56,677 nt of DNA. It comes from Moritella sp. JT01. GTDB lineage: Bacteria > Pseudomonadota > Gammaproteobacteria > Enterobacterales > Moritellaceae. The translations under genes and the position numbers were made by a program. The notes below the pieces were generated by a model that had not been told where the DNA came from, did no database searches, and saw nothing but the letters and a program-made list of their open reading frames with translations. The stretch spans positions 235,019 to 291,695 of the forward strand of contig NZ_LOCN01000019.1 of assembly GCF_001574435.1 (NCBI RefSeq). Reading direction: 5' to 3'. Positions 521 through 36,949 of this stretch are shown here, piece after piece (the stretch's first letter is position 1; each line of letters begins with the position of its first letter).

Positions 521-2665
521 TTAACTATTCTTATCAATCTCATCCGCTTGCGTTTGTACTGCATATTGTAATTGTTCTTCTAGCGCATCATGCTCTGGCT
601 TATCCTTGATCGACACACTCAATTCGCTGTCATCGAACACGTCAGAACATTGTAATATCTCGACCATGTTAGAAGCGATGTCAGGGACTGAATCAACCAT
701 AGTACTGGCAATATCGACCGCGTATTCTGGGATGGTTTCTGCAATTTGAGTAATGTACTCACTCACTGCCGTTTCAATATTCGCGGTGGTATCACCGGGT
801 GTTGATTGTTCCGCTTCAATAAGATTAGCGATATACGCTTCGGCGACCACGTTCGATGACTCTGGTAGCGCTTCTGATACTGCTAAGGCTAACTCGGCAG
901 ACTGTTCAGGTGATACGTCTGTTAAACGGCTATACAGCTCGGTTGCTGTCTGTTCAGATGCGGCTGCAGCACGATCGACAGGACGCATTTCATCTAAAGA
1001 ATTAGATAGATTGGTCATGTATTGATCGGTCATTTCTAGCAATTCTTCTTGGTGAGATTCAACCATATTTTCAGCCGCAACTTCCATTACATCAATACCG
1101 TTGTCTGGCATTGAGTTGGCGATGGCAACAATAATATTGGTAAATTGATCTGGACGTTCAGTGGTGATCCAGTCGACTAATTCTTCAGCTTGTTCTGGTG
1201 AGGCGTTGGTGAGTGCTTCGGCAATATGAATACTCATCTCTGGTGCGGCCGCTGTGATGGCGCGATACAGACGGCTAATATCAATTTCGTCAATGGTACT
1301 TAATGCAGCGGCTAAGTTTGAGGCATCATTTGGGTCGCGCATAGCTAAGGTTTTTGCCATGTTTACTGCGGCGGCTGGATTGTTAGCGGCCAAACTAATC
1401 GCCACTTCAACTTCTGTTGTTTGTTCAAAAGAAGGTTGTGCATACTGGGTTCGAGGATCCAGCTCTGATGCCACACCCGAGGGGGTTTGCATGATAAAGT
1501 TTTCTTGTTCATCGCGCGGTAATGCTGTCTGCTTGATCATATTACCGATGATCAAAGCCAGTAACGTAATGGCCGTAATGCTCACAAATGAAAATAATGC
1601 GGCACTGCCAAACATATTCATGGCGATCGACGCGAGATTGGGTCCCAGAATACTACCCAGTGCGTAAATGAGTAGTAAGGATCCCATTGCCGCGAGGATC
1701 TGCTCTCTTAACACTTTATCGAAGGTTTCTGACATGCTCATTGGGTAGAGGCAAGCGGTTAGCCCCATCACGATCGCAATCGTTAATAAGGTGAGATTAA
1801 ATTGTGATGCACTAATCAGTTGCGGCACTAATAAAGACAATGCAGCGATGGTTAGTACCATACAGAACATGGTTTTACGACGGTCAAAACGGTCGGATAA
1901 ATAGGCGATCGGATATTGGAAAATAATAGCCCCAAAGATAGATGCCCCCATAAAGATGGATAAATTGAAACCTTGAATACCATTATCACTGGCAAAGATA
2001 GGTAACATGTTGACTAAACCTGCATACAGAAACCCGCCATAAAAACAACCGATCACCCCGAGCGGTGACAGTTTTATAATGGTCATTAAGGACATGGATT
2101 GACTGTCTTCCATCTGCGGACCTTGATGTTTACTGATCACCATGGGGGTTATAGAAAGACTAAATAGAATACCGGAGATAACAAACAAAGTGACATCGGT
2201 GACCGGTGCCACGTTTAACAAAAATTGCCCAGAGAAAAGCGCAGACATGATCACCATCTGGTTAATCGATAATATTCGGCCACGGCTTTCTTCTGTGGCG
2301 CTATGGCTTAACCAGCTATCGAGTGTGGCATTGGCACAGGCCATACAAAATCCCGTAAGCATACGCATTACGGCTAACATTAATGGCTCTGGATACAGGC
2401 CAGAAAGCAAGATCGCCACTGAGGTTAAGCTACCGCACATGGCAAATATACGAATGTGGCCAACCCGCTGTAATAGTGTTCGACTATAGATAGCACCAAG
2501 TAAAAAACCCACAGACAGCATAGATAAGATGATACCTATGTTATCGACGCTGATACCGTCATTTTGCATGCGTACAGGTAATAAAATGTTACTCAAACCA
2601 TAACCAAGCATGAGCAAGAAGCCACTGATTAGCAGTAATATGAAGGGTTTAAGGGTCATGACCAC
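521..2665 (-). CDS. MFS transporter with a ~320-residue C-terminal helical extension
   Basis: Residues 1 to about 385 form a 12-helix major facilitator domain, including the loop-2 type motif SRTLLQRVGH and the mid-protein YLSDRFDRRK. The build resembles the YcaD-like group. After the last helix comes an acidic, Ala-rich extension of about 320 residues made of repeating 30-40 residue helical units such as AANNPAAAVNMAKTLA, SPEQAEELVDWI and SPEQSAELALAVSEALP. Typical MFS proteins are about 400 residues, so this one is nearly doubled. The start is GTG at 2665, or ATG at 2659. The extension should be cytoplasmic and may be a scaffold or regulatory domain, but its role and the transport substrate are unknown. 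The gene is transcribed alone, divergently from polB. Confidence 0.8.
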   Translation of the reverse strand: MVMTLKPFILLLISGFLLMLGYGLSNILLPVRMQNDGISVDNIGIILSMLSVGFLLGAIYSRTLLQRVGHIRIFAMCGSLTSVAILLSGLYPEPLMLAVMRMLTGFCMACANATLDSWLSHSATEESRGRILSINQMVIMSALFSGQFLLNVAPVTDVTLFVISGILFSLSITPMVISKHQGPQMEDSQSMSLMTIIKLSPLGVIGCFYGGFLYAGLVNMLPIFASDNGIQGFNLSIFMGASIFGAIIFQYPIAYLSDRFDRRKTMFCMVLTIAALSLLVPQLISASQFNLTLLTIAIVMGLTACLYPMSMSETFDKVLREQILAAMGSLLLIYALGSILGPNLASIAMNMFGSAALFSFVSITAITLLALIIGNMIKQTALPRDEQENFIMQTPSGVASELDPRTQYAQPSFEQTTEVEVAISLAANNPAAAVNMAKTLAMRDPNDASNLAAALSTIDEIDISRLYRAITAAAPEMSIHIAEALTNASPEQAEELVDWITTERPDQFTNIIVAIANSMPDNGIDVMEVAAENMVESHQEELLEMTDQYMTNLSNSLDEMRPVDRAAAASEQTATELYSRLTDVSPEQSAELALAVSEALPESSNVVAEAYIANLIEAEQSTPGDTTANIETAVSEYITQIAETIPEYAVDIASTMVDSVPDIASNMVEILQCSDVFDDSELSVSIKDKPEHDALEEQLQYAVQTQADEIDKNS

Positions 2666-2831
2666 GGGCGTATTCTCTTCTTTATTTAATCTAAAATTGT
2701 TTTTTAATAATTCCTGTAAGCTTTATAACATATAACTAACAAATGATGGCATCAGATTACGTCTTTGTGTAAATATTTTCACGCCTCTAAAAATGCTGTA
2801 CACTTAACCAGTCTTAAACTACTTTTTCTGG

Positions 2832-5288
2832 TTGATTTTGTCTGCTACATATCTGGGTTTTTTATTATCGCGCCATAGCCGTGATCGTAATGGTAACAAT
2901 GAATTAAGCTACTGGTTAGCATCTGAAATGGGTGCGGTTAAACTGATCCCGGCAACCCAGCCGCTGGTGATGTTCATTCCCCAAGATCAACTCACGACAG
3001 CATTAGCTTGTTTAAGTGAATTGAATCCGCGTTTTACTTATAAAGATCTGAAAATGCGCAGTTTTGATTTAGAATTCATGAGTGCCTTTTATTTCCGTAC
3101 TTCGCATGATTACCATCGCGCACAAGAGTTATTAAGACGTAAGCTGGTTACGGTATTAGAAGCCGATATTCGCCCAGCAGAACGTTACTTAATGGAGCGT
3201 TTTGTTAAAGGGGCTATCGAGTTTACGGGTACGCCTGTGCAGCGTAAAGGTTATGTGGAATTTCAACAAGCACAGCTTAAACCAGCGGAACTGCCAGATA
3301 ACTTAGTTGACAAAATTAAACAGATCTCACTGGATATCGAATGTTCAGAACACGGTGAGCTTTACTCAATTGGTTTGTATTCATTAAGCCCTGCGTATTG
3401 CCCAGACGGCCAACCCTTTAAACGTGTCTATATGATTGGGGAAGCACCTGATCGCGATTTACCTCAGGATCCTGAAAGCGACCTTTTAATCCATTGGGTT
3501 GCCGACGAAAAAAGTTTATTACTGGCACTGCAAGCCTTTGTGATCAGTTACGATCCTGACATTTTTATCGGTTGGAATGTAATTAATTTTGATTTCCGTT
3601 TATTAGCTCAGCGCGCCACATTTCATAATCTTAAATTAGCGCTGGGTCGAGGTGGGCAAAACCTGCATTGGCGAGATGGTCGCACACCACAACAGCAAGG
3701 CTTTTTAACCTTACATGGTCGGGTAGTGGTTGATGGCATTGATAGTCTAAAAACCGCAACCTATAATTTCCCAAGCTTTAGTTTAGAAAATGTGGCACAA
3801 GAAATACTCGGTGTTGGTAAAGATACTGACGATGTAGATAATCGCATGGAACAGATCAACCACGACTTTCATTTTAACAAGGTAAAACTGGCAAAATACA
3901 ACCTACAAGATTGCGTATTAGTGTGGGATATTTTTGTTAAAACCCGTTTGTTGGATTTTTTGTTATTACGCTCGCAGTTAACGGGATTAGAATTAGATCG
4001 TAACGGTGGCTCGGTGCTGGCGTTTACCAATGTATACCTGCCTAAGTTACATCGTGCGGGTTATATTGCCCCGAATCTACGTGAGAGTGGAGTACTGGCA
4101 AGTCCTGGTGGTTACGTGATGGACTCATTCCCAGGCTTGTATGACCATGTGATCGTACTGGATTTTAAAAGTCTGTATCCGTCGATTATTCGCACATTCA
4201 AAATTGATCCGGTTGGGTTGTTAGAAGGGGTTCAAAACCCTACGGAGGCCATCCCCGGTTTCCGTGGTGGTTTGTTTAATCGAGATAAACATTATCTGCC
4301 CGATATTATTACTGAACTGTGGGCGCAGCGTGATCAAGCTAAACTCGATAAAGATGCCGCCCGTTCACAGGCCATTAAGATTTTAATGAATTCGTTTTAT
4401 GGTGTGTTAGGGTCGGGCGGGTGTCGTTTTTATGATACCCGATTAGCCTCGTCGATCACCATGCGTGGGCAAGAGATCATGCAGACCACTGCAAAATGGA
4501 TCGAAGAACAGGGCTATAAGGTGATTTATGGCGATACTGATTCTACCTTTGTGTTACTCGATGCGGCTAAATTTACCGACGGTTATAGTGGGTCGTCAGC
4601 TGATCGCGGTTTACAAGCCGACCGCATGGGCGCAGAGCTGTCGGCGTATATTAACCAACAATGGCAGCAACTATTACGTGAAGATTACGATATCGATTGT
4701 TTCTTAGATATTGAATACGAAGTGCATTATCACAAATTCTTAATGCCCACCATCCGGGGTTTGGATAAAGGCAGTAAAAAACGCTATGCCGGATTAGTGC
4801 ATACTAAAGACGGGGAAAAGCTGATCTTCAAAGGCTTGGAAACCGTACGCACCGATTGGACAGACTTAGCCAAGATGTTCCAGATGGAGTTATACCATCG
4901 GGTATTCCATAATATTGCGGTCGAAGATTACGTGTTGGAAATTGTAGAAAAGACGTTAGCCGGTGAGTTTAACGACAAGCTGGTTTACCGTAAACGTTTA
5001 CGCCAAGAATTAGCGCTATATGTGAAAAACGTGCCGCCACACGTAAAAGCTGCGCGCGCCGCAGATGAACATAACCGTCAATTAGGGCAACCGTTACGTT
5101 ATCAGCACAAAGCGTGGATCAGTTATGTGTTAACCCTGAGTGGACCTGAAGCTGTCGAGCATCAACATTCGGTATTAGATTTTGAGCATTACATTGAAAA
5201 ACAAATTAAACCTATTGCCGATGGTATCTTGCCCTTTATTGGCTTGAGTTTTGATTTGATAACCGATCAACAAATGGGATTATTTTAA
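2832..5288 (+). CDS. polB: DNA polymerase II (family B)
   Basis: This is a B-family replicative/repair polymerase. In E. coli, Pol II is SOS-induced and works in translesion synthesis and restart. Exonuclease motifs are present: DIEC near residue 168, GWNVINFDF, and YNLQDC. Polymerase motif A is DFKSLYPSII, motif B KILMNSFYG, and motif C YGDTDST near residue 566, so both activities look intact. The length of about 816-818 aa is slightly above E. coli PolB (783). No ATG lies before the conserved GFLLSRH start block, so a TTG at 2832 or 2838 must serve; no strong Shine-Dalgarno sequence is seen. I did not find a clear LexA box upstream. Confidence 0.95.
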   Translation: MILSATYLGFLLSRHSRDRNGNNELSYWLASEMGAVKLIPATQPLVMFIPQDQLTTALACLSELNPRFTYKDLKMRSFDLEFMSAFYFRTSHDYHRAQELLRRKLVTVLEADIRPAERYLMERFVKGAIEFTGTPVQRKGYVEFQQAQLKPAELPDNLVDKIKQISLDIECSEHGELYSIGLYSLSPAYCPDGQPFKRVYMIGEAPDRDLPQDPESDLLIHWVADEKSLLLALQAFVISYDPDIFIGWNVINFDFRLLAQRATFHNLKLALGRGGQNLHWRDGRTPQQQGFLTLHGRVVVDGIDSLKTATYNFPSFSLENVAQEILGVGKDTDDVDNRMEQINHDFHFNKVKLAKYNLQDCVLVWDIFVKTRLLDFLLLRSQLTGLELDRNGGSVLAFTNVYLPKLHRAGYIAPNLRESGVLASPGGYVMDSFPGLYDHVIVLDFKSLYPSIIRTFKIDPVGLLEGVQNPTEAIPGFRGGLFNRDKHYLPDIITELWAQRDQAKLDKDAARSQAIKILMNSFYGVLGSGGCRFYDTRLASSITMRGQEIMQTTAKWIEEQGYKVIYGDTDSTFVLLDAAKFTDGYSGSSADRGLQADRMGAELSAYINQQWQQLLREDYDIDCFLDIEYEVHYHKFLMPTIRGLDKGSKKRYAGLVHTKDGEKLIFKGLETVRTDWTDLAKMFQMELYHRVFHNIAVEDYVLEIVEKTLAGEFNDKLVYRKRLRQELALYVKNVPPHVKAARAADEHNRQLGQPLRYQHKAWISYVLTLSGPEAVEHQHSVLDFEHYIEKQIKPIADGILPFIGLSFDLITDQQMGLF

Positions 5289-31806: not shown

Positions 31807-32736
31807 ATGCTTAAATACAGTGAGATGTTACTTGATCGTGCATCTAATCAACGCAAAAGCCCCGAATGGCTAGCGAGTCAAAAGAATAACAATAGCCGTT
31901 GGGTATTAACCCATTCAGATCAAAACTATTTTAACCAAGCAGATAATACACCGTTATTTTTAATTCTTGAGGCTGTCCAGCACCTTGATTTAGAGGCTGC
32001 TGTGTTTTTAGGGCTTGATGAAAATAATGATAATACGCCTTACTTTGCGTTGGACTTAACCCATGTTGATGACGCGTTATTCGCTGCCTTTTTGGTTGAT
32101 GGTGAGTTTAGCGATCTGCGTAAAGTCGCGGTGATACTGGATAACCAGTCGGCGTCATTATTGGCACTGGCACGTGGTTTAGGTTTTTGGCATCGTTCGC
32201 ATTGTTTTTGTGGGCGCTGTGGCAGTGCTAATAAATCGGTATCTGCAGGACATGCACGATTATGTACCAATCCAGATTGTCAGCATCAAACATTTCCACG
32301 TACCGATCCTGCGGTGATCATGATTGTGCGAAAGCAGTTTCCTGATGGTATTGAACGTTGTCTGTTAGGCCGTCAAGTCGAATGGCCAGAAGGCGTGTAC
32401 TCGACCTTGGCGGGTTTTGTTGATCCTGGTGAAACGTTAGAAACTGCCGTTGCCAGAGAAGTACAAGAAGAGTCGGGTATTCGCGTTACCAATGTGCAGT
32501 ACTTAGCCTCACAACCTTGGCCATTTCCATCCTCTATCATGTTAGGATTTATTGCCGATGCCAGCAGTGATGATATCCATGTTGATAAACAGGAAATCGA
32601 TGACGCCCGCTGGTTTTCCCGTGCTGAATTACAATCGTTCGGTAATTGGGGCGATGATGCTCCCGGCTTTAAAGTACCAAGACGCGATTCAATTTCGGGT
32701 TATTTAATTGATCACTGGGTTAGTTTGGGTGATTAA
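31807..32736 (+). CDS. nudC: NADH pyrophosphatase / NAD-cap hydrolase
   Basis: NudC hydrolyses NADH and removes NAD caps from RNA. The 309-aa protein carries the NudC zinc site (CGRCG, then CTNPDC, at ~residues 137-158) and the Nudix box GFVDPGETLETAVAREVQEE, continuing to SGI. The NudC-specific SQPWPFPSS motif follows at about 238. The length is greater than the E. coli protein (257) because of a longer N-terminal domain. AGGAAGGA lies just before the ATG. It follows the LysR gene by 65 bases and may be cotranscribed. Confidence 0.95.
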   Translation: MLKYSEMLLDRASNQRKSPEWLASQKNNNSRWVLTHSDQNYFNQADNTPLFLILEAVQHLDLEAAVFLGLDENNDNTPYFALDLTHVDDALFAAFLVDGEFSDLRKVAVILDNQSASLLALARGLGFWHRSHCFCGRCGSANKSVSAGHARLCTNPDCQHQTFPRTDPAVIMIVRKQFPDGIERCLLGRQVEWPEGVYSTLAGFVDPGETLETAVAREVQEESGIRVTNVQYLASQPWPFPSSIMLGFIADASSDDIHVDKQEIDDARWFSRAELQSFGNWGDDAPGFKVPRRDSISGYLIDHWVSLGD

Positions 32737-32797
32737 TTTTTGTCGTTGTGGGCTACTAGCGCATAGCCTATGCCGTCTATTCGCGTAATAAGTACTT

Positions 32798-32957
32798 GAA
32801 CTGGTTAAAGAATGTAAAGAAGCTTGTGGTCAAATATGACTTAAAGTCATAATTGATACTGGCGAATTTAAAGAAGCACATTTAATTAAACGTGCTAGCG
32901 GAATTTGTATCGATCCTGCTGCGTACTCATTGCCGATGCTTCTATTGGTTTCGTAGT
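32798..32957 (+). pseudogene. deoC: deoC (deoxyribose-phosphate aldolase) remnant
   Basis: One frame reads ELVKECKEACGQI, a TGA stop at 32837, then LKVIIDTGEFKEAHLIKRAS. This aligns with the middle of DeoC (E. coli: [30 protein letters not shown]). Similarity fades soon after and the frame stops at 32957. No start or catalytic Lys region remains, so it is a decayed fragment of about 50 codons. Confidence 0.7.
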
Positions 32958-33028
32958 CTTTACCGCAGAAGAAAGCAATAAATCCTTGATGTAAAATCCC
33001 ACTTATTTGCAGTAAGTGGGATTTTTTT
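32947..33028 (+). repeat. 82-bp direct repeat, copy 1, upstream of the porin gene
   Basis: It matches 34341-34422 at about 72 of 82 positions by eye. Its second half is a terminator: AAATCCCACTTA and TAAGTGGGATTT with loop TTTGCAG, followed by T7. The arms co-vary with copy 2 (CCCA/TGGG versus CCCG/CGGG), so both hairpins are kept. From 33029 to 33300 nothing else was recognised apart from the porin promoter region. Confidence 0.8.
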
Positions 33029-33300
33029 CATCCTCAATCCATTCCAATCAATTCTGTGCGCCAAAGCACCGCCGTTTTACTTCGTGTCGTCCCTGGTAAT
33101 AGGGATGGACGATAATCTGGTATTTTTACGAGTTACGGAGTATTAGATTCACTAATATACTGATAGCAAGCAAGGCAAAGTACACGTGCTATAGCTGAGG
33201 GTATTAATGACGCTTATAGATAGCGACGGCGTAAAACTTGTTTTTAATCTGCGGTTCAAAAAATTATTTAACTATCGACTAAACAAAACTGGAATTGTTC

Positions 33301-34266
33301 ATGACAAAAATAAATAAAGCATTATCTCTCACATTAGCAGCTATCGTATCTATGCCTACTCTTGCAGAGAGCATAAATACCGACGATTTTTCTTTTGGTG
33401 GACGTGTTGAAGCAAGGGCCGTACTTACAGACAGCGATTTTTCAGATGCATCTCGCGTTCGTTTAAACGGCCAAGGTAAGCATCAAATTAATGAAGATAT
33501 CACTGCTATTGGTAAATTTGAATTTGAAATAACACAAGATGAGAAAGAATCTGGTACGACTACCAAAAATAATACACGTTATTTATACGTTGGTGCCGAG
33601 ACTGCTTACGGTACTCTAACGTACGGTACTCAAGATAATGCTGTTACATACCTTACCGATTTTACCGATATGGCTGAATTCTTTAGTGGTTATACAAACG
33701 AAAACATAACAGCCAGTGGTGACAGATCTGAAGATACTGTTCTTTATAGCGTGACCAACGGTGATTTTAAATTCAATGCATCCGCTAACCTAAAAGCTAC
33801 GGAAAATGGCGGTGGTGTGATGGTTGCTTATCAATTACTTCCAAATATTGAAGTGAGTGCTGGTTATGCGGCAACAGAAGGTTTTGAGAAAAATACATCT
33901 AGCATAGTAGGTATTGATGAGACTGAATCATCAGATGTATACATGGTCGGTGCTCGTTACACTAAAGATGGCTTTTTACTTGCTGGGTTAGTACAAGCTG
34001 GTAGCTATGGCGGTTCTGACTTCAATGCCGTTGATGCATATGCCGCTTATGCATTTGGTAAAAACAATGTGAATGTTTTATATAATTACTACAGTGCCGA
34101 TGATACAAACGAATTAGATATTAACTTCGTTGCATTTGAATATGCTCGCTATATTGGTGACGTAGCTGCATATGCGAGTTATAAAGTTGCACTTAACTCT
34201 GATACTTCAGCAGGCTATAAATACAATGCAGATGAGTTTGTAGTTGGTGCTCGCTACTCTTTCTAA
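33301..34266 (+). CDS. outer-membrane porin, general trimeric type
   Basis: The 321-aa precursor has a signal peptide (KALSLTLAAIVSMPTLAES) and a beta-barrel of alternating polar and hydrophobic strands. It starts FSFGGRVEARA and ends in GARYSF with the C-terminal Phe that BAM recognises. The motif YVGAETAYGTLTYGTQDN matches the OmpC/OmpU-like group. The ATG at 33301 is preferred to the TTG at 33295, with GGA 6-8 bases before it. The protein would allow diffusion of small solutes. The gene stands alone between two copies of an 82-bp repeat. Confidence 0.88.
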   Translation: MTKINKALSLTLAAIVSMPTLAESINTDDFSFGGRVEARAVLTDSDFSDASRVRLNGQGKHQINEDITAIGKFEFEITQDEKESGTTTKNNTRYLYVGAETAYGTLTYGTQDNAVTYLTDFTDMAEFFSGYTNENITASGDRSEDTVLYSVTNGDFKFNASANLKATENGGGVMVAYQLLPNIEVSAGYAATEGFEKNTSSIVGIDETESSDVYMVGARYTKDGFLLAGLVQAGSYGGSDFNAVDAYAAYAFGKNNVNVLYNYYSADDTNELDINFVAFEYARYIGDVAAYASYKVALNSDTSAGYKYNADEFVVGARYSF

Positions 34267-34340
34267 CCCTGACTGATTCATTGGAATTGGCCTCTTATTG
34301 AGCGGCGTGTAACCAAGAGTTCGCGTTCGCTGCTTTTGTC

Positions 34341-34422
34341 GGTTTCTTAGTCTTGACCGCAGAATAAAATAATAAATCCTTTATGCTAAATCCCGCTTAT
34401 TTGCAGTAAGCGGGATTTTTTT
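34341..34422 (+). repeat. 82-bp direct repeat, copy 2, downstream of the porin gene
   Basis: Same order and orientation as copy 1. It contains the terminator AAATCCCGCTTA / TAAGCGGGATTT with loop TTTGCAG and a T7 tail (34388-34422), which would end porin transcription and separate it from the toxin-like gene that follows. Confidence 0.8.
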
Positions 34423-34504
34423 GATCGTTTAATATTGGTATTACTGTAAAATCCCCCCACAACCTAGCCCTATAAAACTAATATTTGGAAGTATTACTTA
34501 AAAT

Positions 34505-35197
34505 ATGATCGAGATTGAATATGCTATTGGTGAAATTAAAACGTCGATGTTTGTCGTAGAAGATTACATTTTTTACCTTATTGCGAAAGAGTGGATAAAG
34601 GCCGAAGATCTTAATGTGGGTGACAAAATATCCAGTTGCAGTGGTACTGTAGCAGAGATTTTATCCATTAATAAAATCGACGAACCACAATATCGTCCTG
34701 ATTTAAAACTGAGTCACAATCATCACTACTTTGTTACAACAAGTAGTGTGTCAGCTCATGACAAAATCAGTGCTGACGCCCCTGCTGATTCGCTTGAATC
34801 AATCGCATACCTGTTAGCAAACAAACCCTCTAATTTCCCTGATGGAACACCAACGGGTGATCATGCAGGTCCTTGGGCTGCAGCGAAATATATCAACTGT
34901 GATACCAGTGAAGAAGTCATCGGCTGGGGTCGTGCAAGTGACCATATGTGTGCTGAAGATGCCGCGATAAGTGATTTGAGACATAAGCTGGATGATGCTA
35001 TCGGATTACATCGAGGTAATGTCAAAATTTCACATGCCTACGTGAGAAAGTATACTCGCAAAGGTCGCTTCGTGAATAAAATGAGCCCTTGTACTCACTG
35101 CCGAGATAATTATGGCAGCTCGCTAAATGACATAACCATGGGAACAAGCAATGTCGCTAAAGAAGGCCGAGGGTATTTGGCTCCTGTAGGTAACTAA
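34505..35197 (+). CDS. orphan HINT-deaminase toxin module (C-terminal part of a polymorphic toxin)
   Basis: The 230-aa product starts in the middle of a HINT (pretoxin) domain: EWIKAEDLNVGDKI at ~29-42 and LSHNHHYFVTTSSVSAHD at ~69-86. The N-terminal catalytic Cys half is missing and the usual terminal His-Asn reads His-Asp. From about residue 110 a deaminase-fold toxin domain follows: C149-A-E in DHMCAEDAAI and P195-C-T-H-C199 in SPCTHCRDNYG, the zinc and catalytic motifs of the cytidine deaminase superfamily. No delivery domains, Rhs repeats or secretion genes adjoin it. No immunity gene is evident in 35198-35344. It looks like a displaced C-terminal cassette with a new start. Confidence 0.75.
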   Translation: MIEIEYAIGEIKTSMFVVEDYIFYLIAKEWIKAEDLNVGDKISSCSGTVAEILSINKIDEPQYRPDLKLSHNHHYFVTTSSVSAHDKISADAPADSLESIAYLLANKPSNFPDGTPTGDHAGPWAAAKYINCDTSEEVIGWGRASDHMCAEDAAISDLRHKLDDAIGLHRGNVKISHAYVRKYTRKGRFVNKMSPCTHCRDNYGSSLNDITMGTSNVAKEGRGYLAPVGN

Positions 35198-35282
35198 GGC
35201 TAATTTAAAATATTCACCGCTTAAGAGGTGGTCGAAATCGCGTGGCTATTTATTGAATATAGTCCCTTAACTACTCATGTGA

Positions 35283-35316
35283 AAAGGCCCCCAGCTAGAC
35301 TTAGCTGGGGGCCTTT
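35283..35316. terminator. bidirectional terminator between the toxin module and lldP
   Basis: AAAGGCCCCCAGCTA and TAGCTGGGGGCCTTT form a perfect 15-bp stem with a four-base loop. Confidence 0.88.
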
Positions 35317-35344
35317 GATTAATAAGCGTTATAAAGTGTACTTA

Positions 35345-36949
35345 TTATATAAACGTACTCATTACCGCGGCAATTAGACCGTAGATAATCATTGGAATAA
35401 CGGTGCGTTTAATGATGTAACCTTCTTTGTTCGAAATACCCAAGATAGTCGATACTGCAATGATGTTGTTAATACAGACCATGTTACCCATCGCGCCACC
35501 CACAGATTGCAGTGCCAAGATAGTTGTTTCAGGTAAGCCAACTGTGGTTGCGATTGTTTGCTGAATACCACCAAATGTCAGGTTAGATACTGTTGCCGAG
35601 CCCGAGAAAAATGCACCTAGTGCGCCCAGATAAGCAGATGCAAACTGCCAGTTAGTCCCCATAAAATCAGAGAGTGCCATGCCAATGATTAGAATAGGTG
35701 AGTTCTCACCGCCCGCCATCATTAGTTTTACCATGATCAGCGCACCAATCAAGGTAATGAATGGCATTTTGATACGGCTACCTGTTTCGCAAAATACTTG
35801 CTTAACCATGCTGCCTTTAAGTTTAAACAGTGGGATAGAAATTAATACCACTAATAAGAAAGGAACAAGAGCCGGAACATAAAGTGCTTTGTAAGCCCAA
35901 GTCACGTTAGTCCCTAAGATGTTACTTAGCTTGAAGATTAACGCTTGGCTGATACTAAAGTCACCTAAGTTCCCCAACGACGCTGACACTGCTTCAGTCG
36001 CATCCGTTAGCATTGATTTAATACCAAGCTGCTTAATACGCGTCACAATTAAGATAACAATTAATAGCAGTGTGGGTGTCATGGCTTTGAAGATCTCGCC
36101 ACGGCTCACAGTCTGCTTCGATGTGTTGTCGTCTGGACTTGCGGCTACTTTACCCAAACCGACGTTTAACTTAGCTAGGCCAATCGAGATAGTCAGGCCA
36201 ATTGCGCCACCTACTAATGCTGGGAATTCATAGTTCCATTGTGCGAATAAGAAATACGGGATAGTACACGACAGGGTACTTAATAGAATGAAGACGTAGT
36301 TACGACGGATCTCAGTCCAAGACGTGACAAAGCGTAATGCCAATACTGGGATAACAAATGCCGCAACAAAGTGGATCATTGCCGTTTGTTGACCAATTTC
36401 TAATAACTGGTTATCGGTTAAGCCTAAGCCTGAGAAACCAAACCATGTTGGCGTACCAACCGCACCAAATGATACAGGTACCGAGTTCATCACTAGCGCT
36501 AACATCGCTACTTGTAATGGTGGGAAACCCAAACCAACTAAGATCGGCGCTGCAATGGCCGCTGGCGTACCAAATCCGGATGCACCTTCAATCATAAAGG
36601 CAAACGCCCAACCAATGATCATTAACTGAGCAACTTTATTACGGCTGATGCCTTCTAACCAGCGACTGATGGTATTTTCAGCCCCTGACAGACACATCAT
36701 GCGGTTCATTAAAATTGCCCCGGCAATAATCGATATAGGGGTAATGGCTGACAAGCTACCAGCGATTATATTTGCCCAGATCAGAGTCAGGTCTGTTTGG
36801 AAATAAAAGATTTGCAGTGCTGCCACAAACAACGCTGTTAACGGCAGTGCAATGTACGAGGGTACACCATTCTTTTTGGTCATCATCCATATTAGGGCGA
36901 TAATTGGCATCATTGCCAAGATTAGGGATGTCATTGCTACCCACTCCAT
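35345..36949 (-). CDS. lldP: L-lactate permease (LctP/LldP family)
   Basis: This 534-aa membrane protein has 12 or more helices. Family blocks are FMIEGASGFGTPAAIAAPILVG and VMNSVPVSFGAVGTPTWFG (in two parts), and near the end GSATVSNLTFGGIQQ and QSVGGAMGNMVCINNIIA. It brings lactate in with protons. The ATG at 36949 opens the frame, but the ATG at 36934 has GGAG 9 bases before it and may be the true start. It is divergent from lldEFG across about 790 bp and lies next to the D-lactate dehydrogenase group. Confidence 0.93.
   Translation of the reverse strand: MEWVAMTSLILAMMPIIALIWMMTKKNGVPSYIALPLTALFVAALQIFYFQTDLTLIWANIIAGSLSAITPISIIAGAILMNRMMCLSGAENTISRWLEGISRNKVAQLMIIGWAFAFMIEGASGFGTPAAIAAPILVGLGFPPLQVAMLALVMNSVPVSFGAVGTPTWFGFSGLGLTDNQLLEIGQQTAMIHFVAAFVIPVLALRFVTSWTEIRRNYVFILLSTLSCTIPYFLFAQWNYEFPALVGGAIGLTISIGLAKLNVGLGKVAASPDDNTSKQTVSRGEIFKAMTPTLLLIVILIVTRIKQLGIKSMLTDATEAVSASLGNLGDFSISQALIFKLSNILGTNVTWAYKALYVPALVPFLLVVLISIPLFKLKGSMVKQVFCETGSRIKMPFITLIGALIMVKLMMAGGENSPILIIGMALSDFMGTNWQFASAYLGALGAFFSGSATVSNLTFGGIQQTIATTVGLPETTILALQSVGGAMGNMVCINNIIAVSTILGISNKEGYIIKRTVIPMIIYGLIAAVMSTFI

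What the first reader, a model, noticed from the sequence alone, without database searches (positions are those of the whole stretch)
34505..35197. Orphan HINT-deaminase polymorphic toxin cassette without delivery or immunity genes
The protein begins half-way through a HINT domain and ends with a deaminase-type toxin domain (Cys149-Ala-Glu and Pro195-Cys-x-x-Cys199). The autoprocessing Cys half is gone and the HINT end is His-Asp, so self-cleavage should be lost. No Rhs, filamentous or secretion gene and no immunity gene adjoin it. It sits just after a duplicated terminator. It may be a displaced C-terminal cassette kept for recombination, a free intracellular deaminase, or a decaying remnant. 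The deaminase subfamily could not be named and may be new.
Basis: partly seen in the sequence, partly recalled or inferred. Interest (0 to 1): 0.75.

Follow-up and report, generated by a model that had tools for sequence, protein, structure and literature searches.

The report
Conserved stand-alone half-HINT deaminase gene
A small gene that looks like the cut-off tail of a bacterial weapon (half of a self-cutting domain plus a base-changing enzyme) turns out to be a conserved, free-standing gene shared by related marine bacteria, probably an enzyme that works inside the cell.

Summary
Window 34505-35197 encodes 230 aa: the C-terminal part of a pretoxin-HINT domain, then a zinc-deaminase-type domain with C149-A-E151 and P195-C-x-x-C199. 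The reading needs changing: this is a conserved family, not a remnant. Intact copies occur in 4 of 11 genomes of the window's genus and 23 of 129 of the Shewanella genus. All 27 share the start Met, the half-HINT and the zinc/catalytic residues. dN/dS is 0.07-0.17 in the deaminase part of seven copies. No Rhs-like ORF lies near them and no linked immunity gene is shared. Copies occupy at least seven sites, and site follows gene clade. An AlphaFold model of moderate confidence puts both motifs at the starts of two helices in deaminase order; Foldseek lists mostly deaminases and inteins, none at E<=0.001. Best reading: a toxin-derived deaminase kept as a free intracellular enzyme. Substrate, activity and toxicity are untested; a delivered toxin with unlinked immunity remains possible.

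The parts
34505..35197 (+). Coding sequence of the half-HINT deaminase protein, 230 aa; its first Met is shared by all 27 intact copies
34508..34744 (+). C-terminal part of a pretoxin HINT domain (residues 2-80); no N-terminal Cys half, no terminal His-Asn; a His kept in 25 of 27 copies is Tyr21 here
34784..35131 (+). Zinc-deaminase-type domain (about residues 94-209): helix 96-105, strands 124-130 and 137-143, helix 150-162, strand 173-178, helix 197-206
   Evidence: AlphaFold model of moderate confidence; weak PF00383 matches; Foldseek
34949..34957 (+). Cys149-Ala-Glu151: predicted zinc ligand and catalytic Glu
   Evidence: 27 of 27 identical; role recalled from the deaminase superfamily
35087..35101 (+). 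Pro195-Cys196-x-x-Cys199: predicted zinc ligands
   Evidence: 27 of 27 identical; role recalled
34463..34504 (+). About 42 nt of leader that goes with the gene at several sites; conserved as DNA/RNA rather than as codons; the PT-HINT profile extends into it in 2 of 4 copies of the genus
34388..34418 (+). Terminator-like hairpin between the porin gene and this gene
   Evidence: count not above chance; a near-copy at about 32994-33030
35283..35316 (.). G+C-rich inverted repeat between this gene and the convergent lactate permease gene, possibly a terminator
   Evidence: seen directly in the sequence; not listed by the scan

Best explanation
The gene encodes a free-standing, probably non-secreted zinc-dependent deaminase. 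Its ancestor was the C-terminal end (HINT plus deaminase toxin) of a polymorphic toxin; the delivery part, the cleaving half of HINT and any linked immunity gene were lost before the family spread. The half-HINT no longer cleaves and is kept as a beta-rich domain fused to the enzyme, perhaps for folding, dimerisation or substrate access. The enzyme is expected to deaminate cytosine or a related base with a Cys/Cys/Cys zinc site and a Glu, in nucleic acid or in a free nucleotide, inside the producing cell. Shown here: architecture, common start, invariant motifs, purifying selection, no partner shared between sites, few relocations followed by inheritance. Inferred: toxin ancestry, catalysis, intracellular site, loss of toxicity, substrate.
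For: 27 intact copies of 226-248 aa that align from the same Met; the most divergent group (serS-tus site) keeps that start without the leader. Zinc/catalytic residues identical in 27 of 27 and 69 invariant columns in all. dN/dS over 21 pairs of 7 copies: 0.07-0.17 for residues 92-225, 0.09-0.43 for residues 1-91. AlphaFold places C149AE at the start of helix 150-162 and P195CxxC at the start of helix 197-206; of the 50 Foldseek rows shown 24 are deaminases, 19 inteins or intein-like, 7 unrelated. The family profile against a complete HINT: probability 95%, E 3.5e-8, residues 9-83. Among the ten nearest ORFs in 28 loci no cluster recurs between sites, but for one upstream gene in L073 that may mean the same site and one cluster shared by L073 and the fragment locus L089. 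No Rhs-like ORF in 29 loci, with a positive control. Site follows clade: 7 changes for 8 site labels, the minimum; shuffled mean 18.4.
Against: No activity, expression or substrate is known. The model is of moderate confidence (mean pLDDT 69.9, pTM 0.57) and no Foldseek match reaches E 0.001; deaminase rows have TM-scores of 0.34 or less and rmsd of 5 to 12. BLASTP of the window protein alone against the complete HINT finds nothing. The distribution is patchy (4 of 11, 23 of 129), one Shewanella-genus genome holds only fragments, and four more rows are stop-ridden stretches that may be decayed copies or chance; so the gene is dispensable, as an accessory toxin would be. One of the 27 (G1140) meets a stop inside the profile match and ends at 227 aa. 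Immunity or delivery genes elsewhere in the genome were not excluded; no signal-peptide program was run.
Confidence: 0.6

Rival explanations
1. A working antibacterial deaminase toxin that travels by itself: it is delivered by an unlinked secretion system or released on lysis, and its immunity gene lies elsewhere.
For: The domain pairing (HINT before a deaminase) is that of polymorphic toxins (passages of PMC3482391); patchy distribution and movement between sites; the interval beside lactate permease holds different genes in seven related species.
Against: No delivery module in any of the 27 proteins and no linked gene shared between sites. Solo cassettes and their immunity genes normally come together (passages of PMC3482391).
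Confidence: 0.17
2. A solo toxin cassette stored for recombination into a full-length toxin, kept in register by the half-HINT.
For: The half-HINT is a plausible crossover region, and solo cassettes are a described part of these systems (passages of PMC3482391). Other HINT proteins exist in 2 of 11 genomes of the genus.
Against: No full toxin with this C-terminus in the genomes sampled: 1 match in the own genome, 1 of 369 in the class sample and 1 of 398 in the phylum sample, each time the window's own gene. The HINT protein looked at in the genus (G003) has no such deaminase end. Position is inherited with the clade.
Confidence: 0.1
3. A decaying remnant of a lost toxin gene.
For: Missing HINT half; in-frame stops in 7 of 16 leaders examined; fragments in one genome and stop-ridden rows in four others.
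Against: 27 intact frames, invariant catalytic residues, dN/dS far below 1.
Confidence: 0.03
4. A catalytically silent binding protein that only keeps the deaminase fold.
For: No activity known; faster-changing half-HINT.
Against: C149, E151, C196 and C199 are invariant in 27 of 27.
Confidence: 0.07

Closest known systems
HINT-type polymorphic toxins with deaminase tips (Zhang et al. 2012, PMC3482391; passages seen)
   Same: HINT before a C-terminal deaminase-type domain; [HCD]xE and CxxC motifs
   Different: No N-terminal trafficking part, HINT cut to its C-terminal half without cleavage residues, no linked immunity gene shared between sites, kept alone in 27 genomes
HINT plus YwqJ-deaminase protein in another genus of the same order (L093)
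   Same: HINT then deaminase in one protein; our half-HINT profile aligns with its HINT at 95%
   Different: Complete HINT, long linker, HAE-type deaminase; the two deaminase parts do not align usefully (probability 0.04%)
Cytidine deaminase and blasticidin S deaminase (PF00383 and PDB entries)
   Same: Order of helices and strands in the model, C/H-A-E and P-C-x-x-C motifs; commonest deaminases in the Foldseek list
   Different: Sequence match below the Pfam cut-off; half-HINT in front; no evidence of a nucleoside substrate
Interbacterial DNA deaminase toxins DddA, SsdA and the Pput_2613-like group (PMC7901873; passages seen)
   Same: Same superfamily signature; toxin-derived logic
   Different: No Pfam toxin-deaminase family matched; no delivery or immunity partner seen

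Membership tests
Zinc-dependent deaminase superfamily | [HCD]xE and CxxC motifs in order | tested here: met
   27 of 27; motif definition from a passage of PMC3482391
Zinc-dependent deaminase superfamily | core fold with the motifs at the starts of the two catalytic helices | tested here: inconclusive
   AlphaFold secondary structure agrees but confidence is moderate; 24 of 50 Foldseek rows are deaminases, none at E<=0.001
Zinc-dependent deaminase superfamily | sequence match above a curated cut-off | tested here: not met
   PF00383 in 14 of 27, best E 3.9e-4, 20.7 bits against 25, that best stretch spanning residues 32-201 with a large gap; NCBIfam cytidine deaminase 19 of 27, best E 0.021
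Zinc-dependent deaminase superfamily | zinc binding and deamination | not testable with these tools
   needs purified protein
PT-HINT domain (PF07591) | sequence match | tested here: met
   27 of 27 members at E<=10, best 5.3e-10; the window copy is 27.2 bits against 27.7 by hmmscan and 28.3 in the genome search
PT-HINT domain (PF07591) | complete domain with N-terminal Cys and C-terminal His-Asn (self-cleaving) | tested here: not met
   profile positions 49-125 of 137 only; Asn in 0 of 27 at position 86; catalytic roles recalled
Polymorphic toxin system | N-terminal trafficking/presentation part | tested here: not met
   all 27 proteins are 226-248 aa and start inside HINT
Polymorphic toxin system | linked immunity gene | tested here: not met
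   no neighbour cluster (ORFs of 70 aa or more, five on each side) recurs between clearly different sites in 28 loci; shorter or unlinked genes not excluded
Polymorphic toxin system | toxicity to non-immune cells | not testable with these tools
   needs an expression assay
Solo toxin cassette | lies beside a full-length toxin gene | tested here: not met
   no Rhs-like ORF in 29 loci of 9 to 57 kb, control L090 positive; filamentous-type toxins were not a criterion of that test

The most novel reading that the evidence does not exclude
A polymorphic-toxin deaminase has been domesticated into a resident single-gene enzyme of Shewanella and a related genus, with a crippled half-HINT as its permanent partner domain. 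It would edit or mutate the cell's own DNA or RNA, or act on invading phage nucleic acid or nucleotide pools, and it moves between fixed sites as one gene with its own leader.
Probability: 0.3. Interest if true: 0.78.

Novelty: new variant of a known kind. Interest (0 to 1): 0.52.

Why it matters
Toxin deaminases are thought to be the source of several editing enzymes (recalled, Iyer et al. 2011), but I recall no clear bacterial family caught after loss of delivery, cleavage and linked immunity. This family offers 27 orthologues with one shared truncation, an invariant active site and inherited positions, so domestication against hidden toxicity can be tested directly. A deaminase part without a family model of its own is also of practical interest as a source of base-modifying enzymes.

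Tried and rejected
Remnant: rejected for the family by 27 intact frames and low dN/dS. Longer protein read from upstream: the codons before the ATG look HINT-like in several copies and in G010 the PT-HINT profile runs through a stop into them (in 2 of the 4 copies of the genus it extends upstream, in 2 it does not). But of the 16 leaders I chose as leader-bearing (11 of 27 left out: sites c70, c48 and serS-tus) 7 have an in-frame stop in the last 14 codons and identity shows no codon rhythm (third positions 0.73, first and second 0.72); the serS-tus group lacks the sequence. So I read the leader as untranslated. Its RNA fold is ordinary (z 0.59).

Viral relative: one IMG/VR hit (L092) is chance; the matching frame carries stops and lies opposite a terminase-like ORF. 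A first viral scan found none. Plasmid and phage searches with three members gave nothing, HINT-only matches or a chance match.

Closeness to E. coli-type cytidine deaminase: hhalign gives 93.6%, E 2.1e-7, but over 37 columns that pair ISHAY with ISHAW; in Cdd that stretch lies 4 residues after the HAE motif, here 24 after CAE, so I do not use it. The weak PDB matches to cytidine deaminase (best E 0.19) rest on the same stretch. Comparison with sequences fetched through PF14437, which I take for TadA, gave 1.3%. YwqJ: no useful match.

Not finished: a second structure job on the deaminase part alone, which might have told C-terminal-hairpin from helix-4 deaminases; the VIA-align library was not available.

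Full report
What is there. Window 34505-35197 (+) encodes 230 aa. Residues 2-80 match the pretoxin HINT profile PF07591 at positions 49-125 of 137, E 5.2e-6, just under the cut-off. As a family profile, residues 9-83 align with a complete HINT domain from another genus at probability 95%, E 3.5e-8; the single window protein does not find it by BLASTP. The N-terminal half is absent and the terminal His-Asn is not kept. The rest carries C149-A-E151 and P195-C-x-x-C199. For this copy no Pfam, NCBIfam, PHROGs or PADLOC family claims it; over 27 relatives, at E<=10, PF00383 is touched by 14, best E 3.9e-4 and below cut-off, and an NCBIfam cytidine deaminase by 19, best E 0.021.

The fold. An AlphaFold model from 27 sequences has mean pLDDT 69.9 and pTM 0.57. 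The first part has six strands. The second reads helix 96-105, strands 124-130 and 137-143, helix 150-162, strand 173-178, helix 197-206, with CAE entering one helix and PCxxC the next, which is the order of the deaminase core (recalled). Foldseek against the PDB gives 365 matches at E<=10 and none at E<=0.001; of the 50 rows shown, by my count, 24 are deaminase entries (mostly cytidine deaminases, two blasticidin S deaminase chains, yeast CDD1, one APOBEC3H complex), 19 are inteins or intein-like domains and 7 are unrelated. Deaminase rows have low TM-scores and rmsd of 5 to 12. The table does not say which residues each match covers, so that each half finds its own kind is my inference.

The family. 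In the window's genus 4 of 11 genomes hold an intact copy; one more (G007) holds residues 186-227 at a contig end, and not beside lactate permease. In the genus of G181, 23 of 129 genomes hold an intact copy at E<=2.4e-63. In that search G1146 holds two fragments, four rows (G1168, G1163, G1177, G1151) are stop-ridden stretches, decayed copies or chance, not followed up; five of the remaining weak rows were opened and hold a cytidine deaminase ORF, and I take the rest to be the same. That genus is Shewanella: contigs of G1086 and G1094 have the lengths of the named S. abyssi and S. atlantica contigs. No call named the window's genus. In a sample of 394 genomes of the order, strong matches came only from these two genera, with eight weak rows, five of which were opened and are cytidine deaminases. 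In the class (369) and phylum (398) samples only the window itself matched at E<=5e-4. No plasmid or phage record matched the deaminase part convincingly. The samples are not exhaustive.

Not a remnant. The 27 intact proteins are 226-248 aa and align from the same Met, with 69 invariant columns that include C149, A150, E151, C196 and C199. Over 21 pairs among seven copies, dN/dS is 0.07-0.17 for residues 92-225 and 0.09-0.43 for residues 1-91. Many dS values are near 1, so the ratios are rough. In this copy and one other a His kept in 25 of 27 is Tyr21.

Surroundings. In the window the neighbours are LysR, NudC, a porin, and on the other side lactate permease and lactate-utilisation genes. In 28 loci (27 with the intact gene, one with a fragment) the five ORFs of 70 aa or more on each side were clustered. 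Clusters recur within a site but not between clearly different sites; the exceptions are one upstream gene that L073 shares with the formate-dehydrogenase-like site, perhaps the same site, and one cluster shared by L073 and the fragment locus L089. In 29 loci (the same, one genome twice) no Rhs-like ORF was found by a simple pattern that rings in the control locus L090. Sites group as lactate permease (own genus), phospholipase-D-like, formate-dehydrogenase-like, serS-tus, and others: at least seven. Names of neighbours outside the window are my reading of the sequences. On a maximum-likelihood tree of the 27 proteins my eight site labels need seven changes, the minimum, against a shuffled mean of 18.4; 11 of 24 inner branches are weak. 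So the gene relocates rarely and is then inherited. In seven other species of the genus the DNA beside lactate permease holds different genes; in one of them (L134) neither NudC nor the porin was seen within the 8 kb taken.

The leader. In 16 copies from five site labels the 36 nt before the ATG are 72% identical between sites (93 pairs), against 61% at third positions of codons 2-57 and 32% from -80 to -43. There is no codon rhythm and 7 of 16 have an in-frame stop. I picked these 16 as leader-bearing and left out 11; the edge near -42 was set by eye. In G010 and G004 the PT-HINT profile extends upstream of the ATG, in G000 and G009 it does not. I read the leader as a former piece of HINT that now serves as untranslated leader and marks the upstream edge of the moving unit. 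That is inference.

How it likely works. The common truncation, invariant active site, absence of a shared partner and inherited positions point to a resident enzyme. Zhang et al. describe polymorphic toxins as accompanied by solo cassettes and immunity genes, cassettes also occurring as toxin-immunity pairs (PMC3482391, passages); I saw neither here. Toxin deaminases of three groups mutate DNA (PMC7901873, passages), so a nucleic-acid substrate is plausible, and the invariant R181-K182-Y183 and R188 could contact it; both are inference. Toxicity stays open: an unlinked immunity gene or secretion route was not excluded.

In print. I searched for polymorphic-toxin HINT deaminases, deaminase with Shewanella and HINT domain (no paper), domesticated toxin deaminases, deaminase toxins with interbacterial and Shewanella terms (10 of 87 listed) and truncated or pretoxin HINT with deaminase. 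No listed title or abstract start concerns this family. I read passages of two papers and only listings of the rest; most subscription journals are not covered.

Noticed in passing
window 32734-35345 and L133-L139: The DNA between NudC or the porin and lactate permease is variable in the genus: seven other species hold different genes beside lactate permease.
   Followed up: partly
window 32994-33030 and 34388-34418: Two near-identical terminator-like hairpins flank the porin gene; the first was not listed by the scan.
   Followed up: no
L093 (G026), 1426-3261 -: A 611-aa protein with a complete HINT and a YwqJ-type deaminase end in another genus of the order, followed by a 135-aa ORF that could be its immunity protein.
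   Followed up: partly
L090 (G003): An Rhs-core protein next to an 804-aa protein with a HINT-like stretch near its end, in the window's genus.
   Followed up: no
L011, Salicola phage SCTP-2 gene 204: A hypothetical protein of a 440-kb phage matches the half-HINT (41% over residues 11-76, E 6e-4).
   Followed up: no
L012 9725-10093: A 122-aa ORF with no Pfam match follows the gene in one of four genomes of the genus; not listed after the gene in the window or the other two.
   Followed up: partly
G1146 (L054, L089); G1168, G1163, G1177, G1151: Fragments or stop-ridden stretches similar to the deaminase part in a few Shewanella-genus genomes: the gene may decay in places.
   Followed up: no
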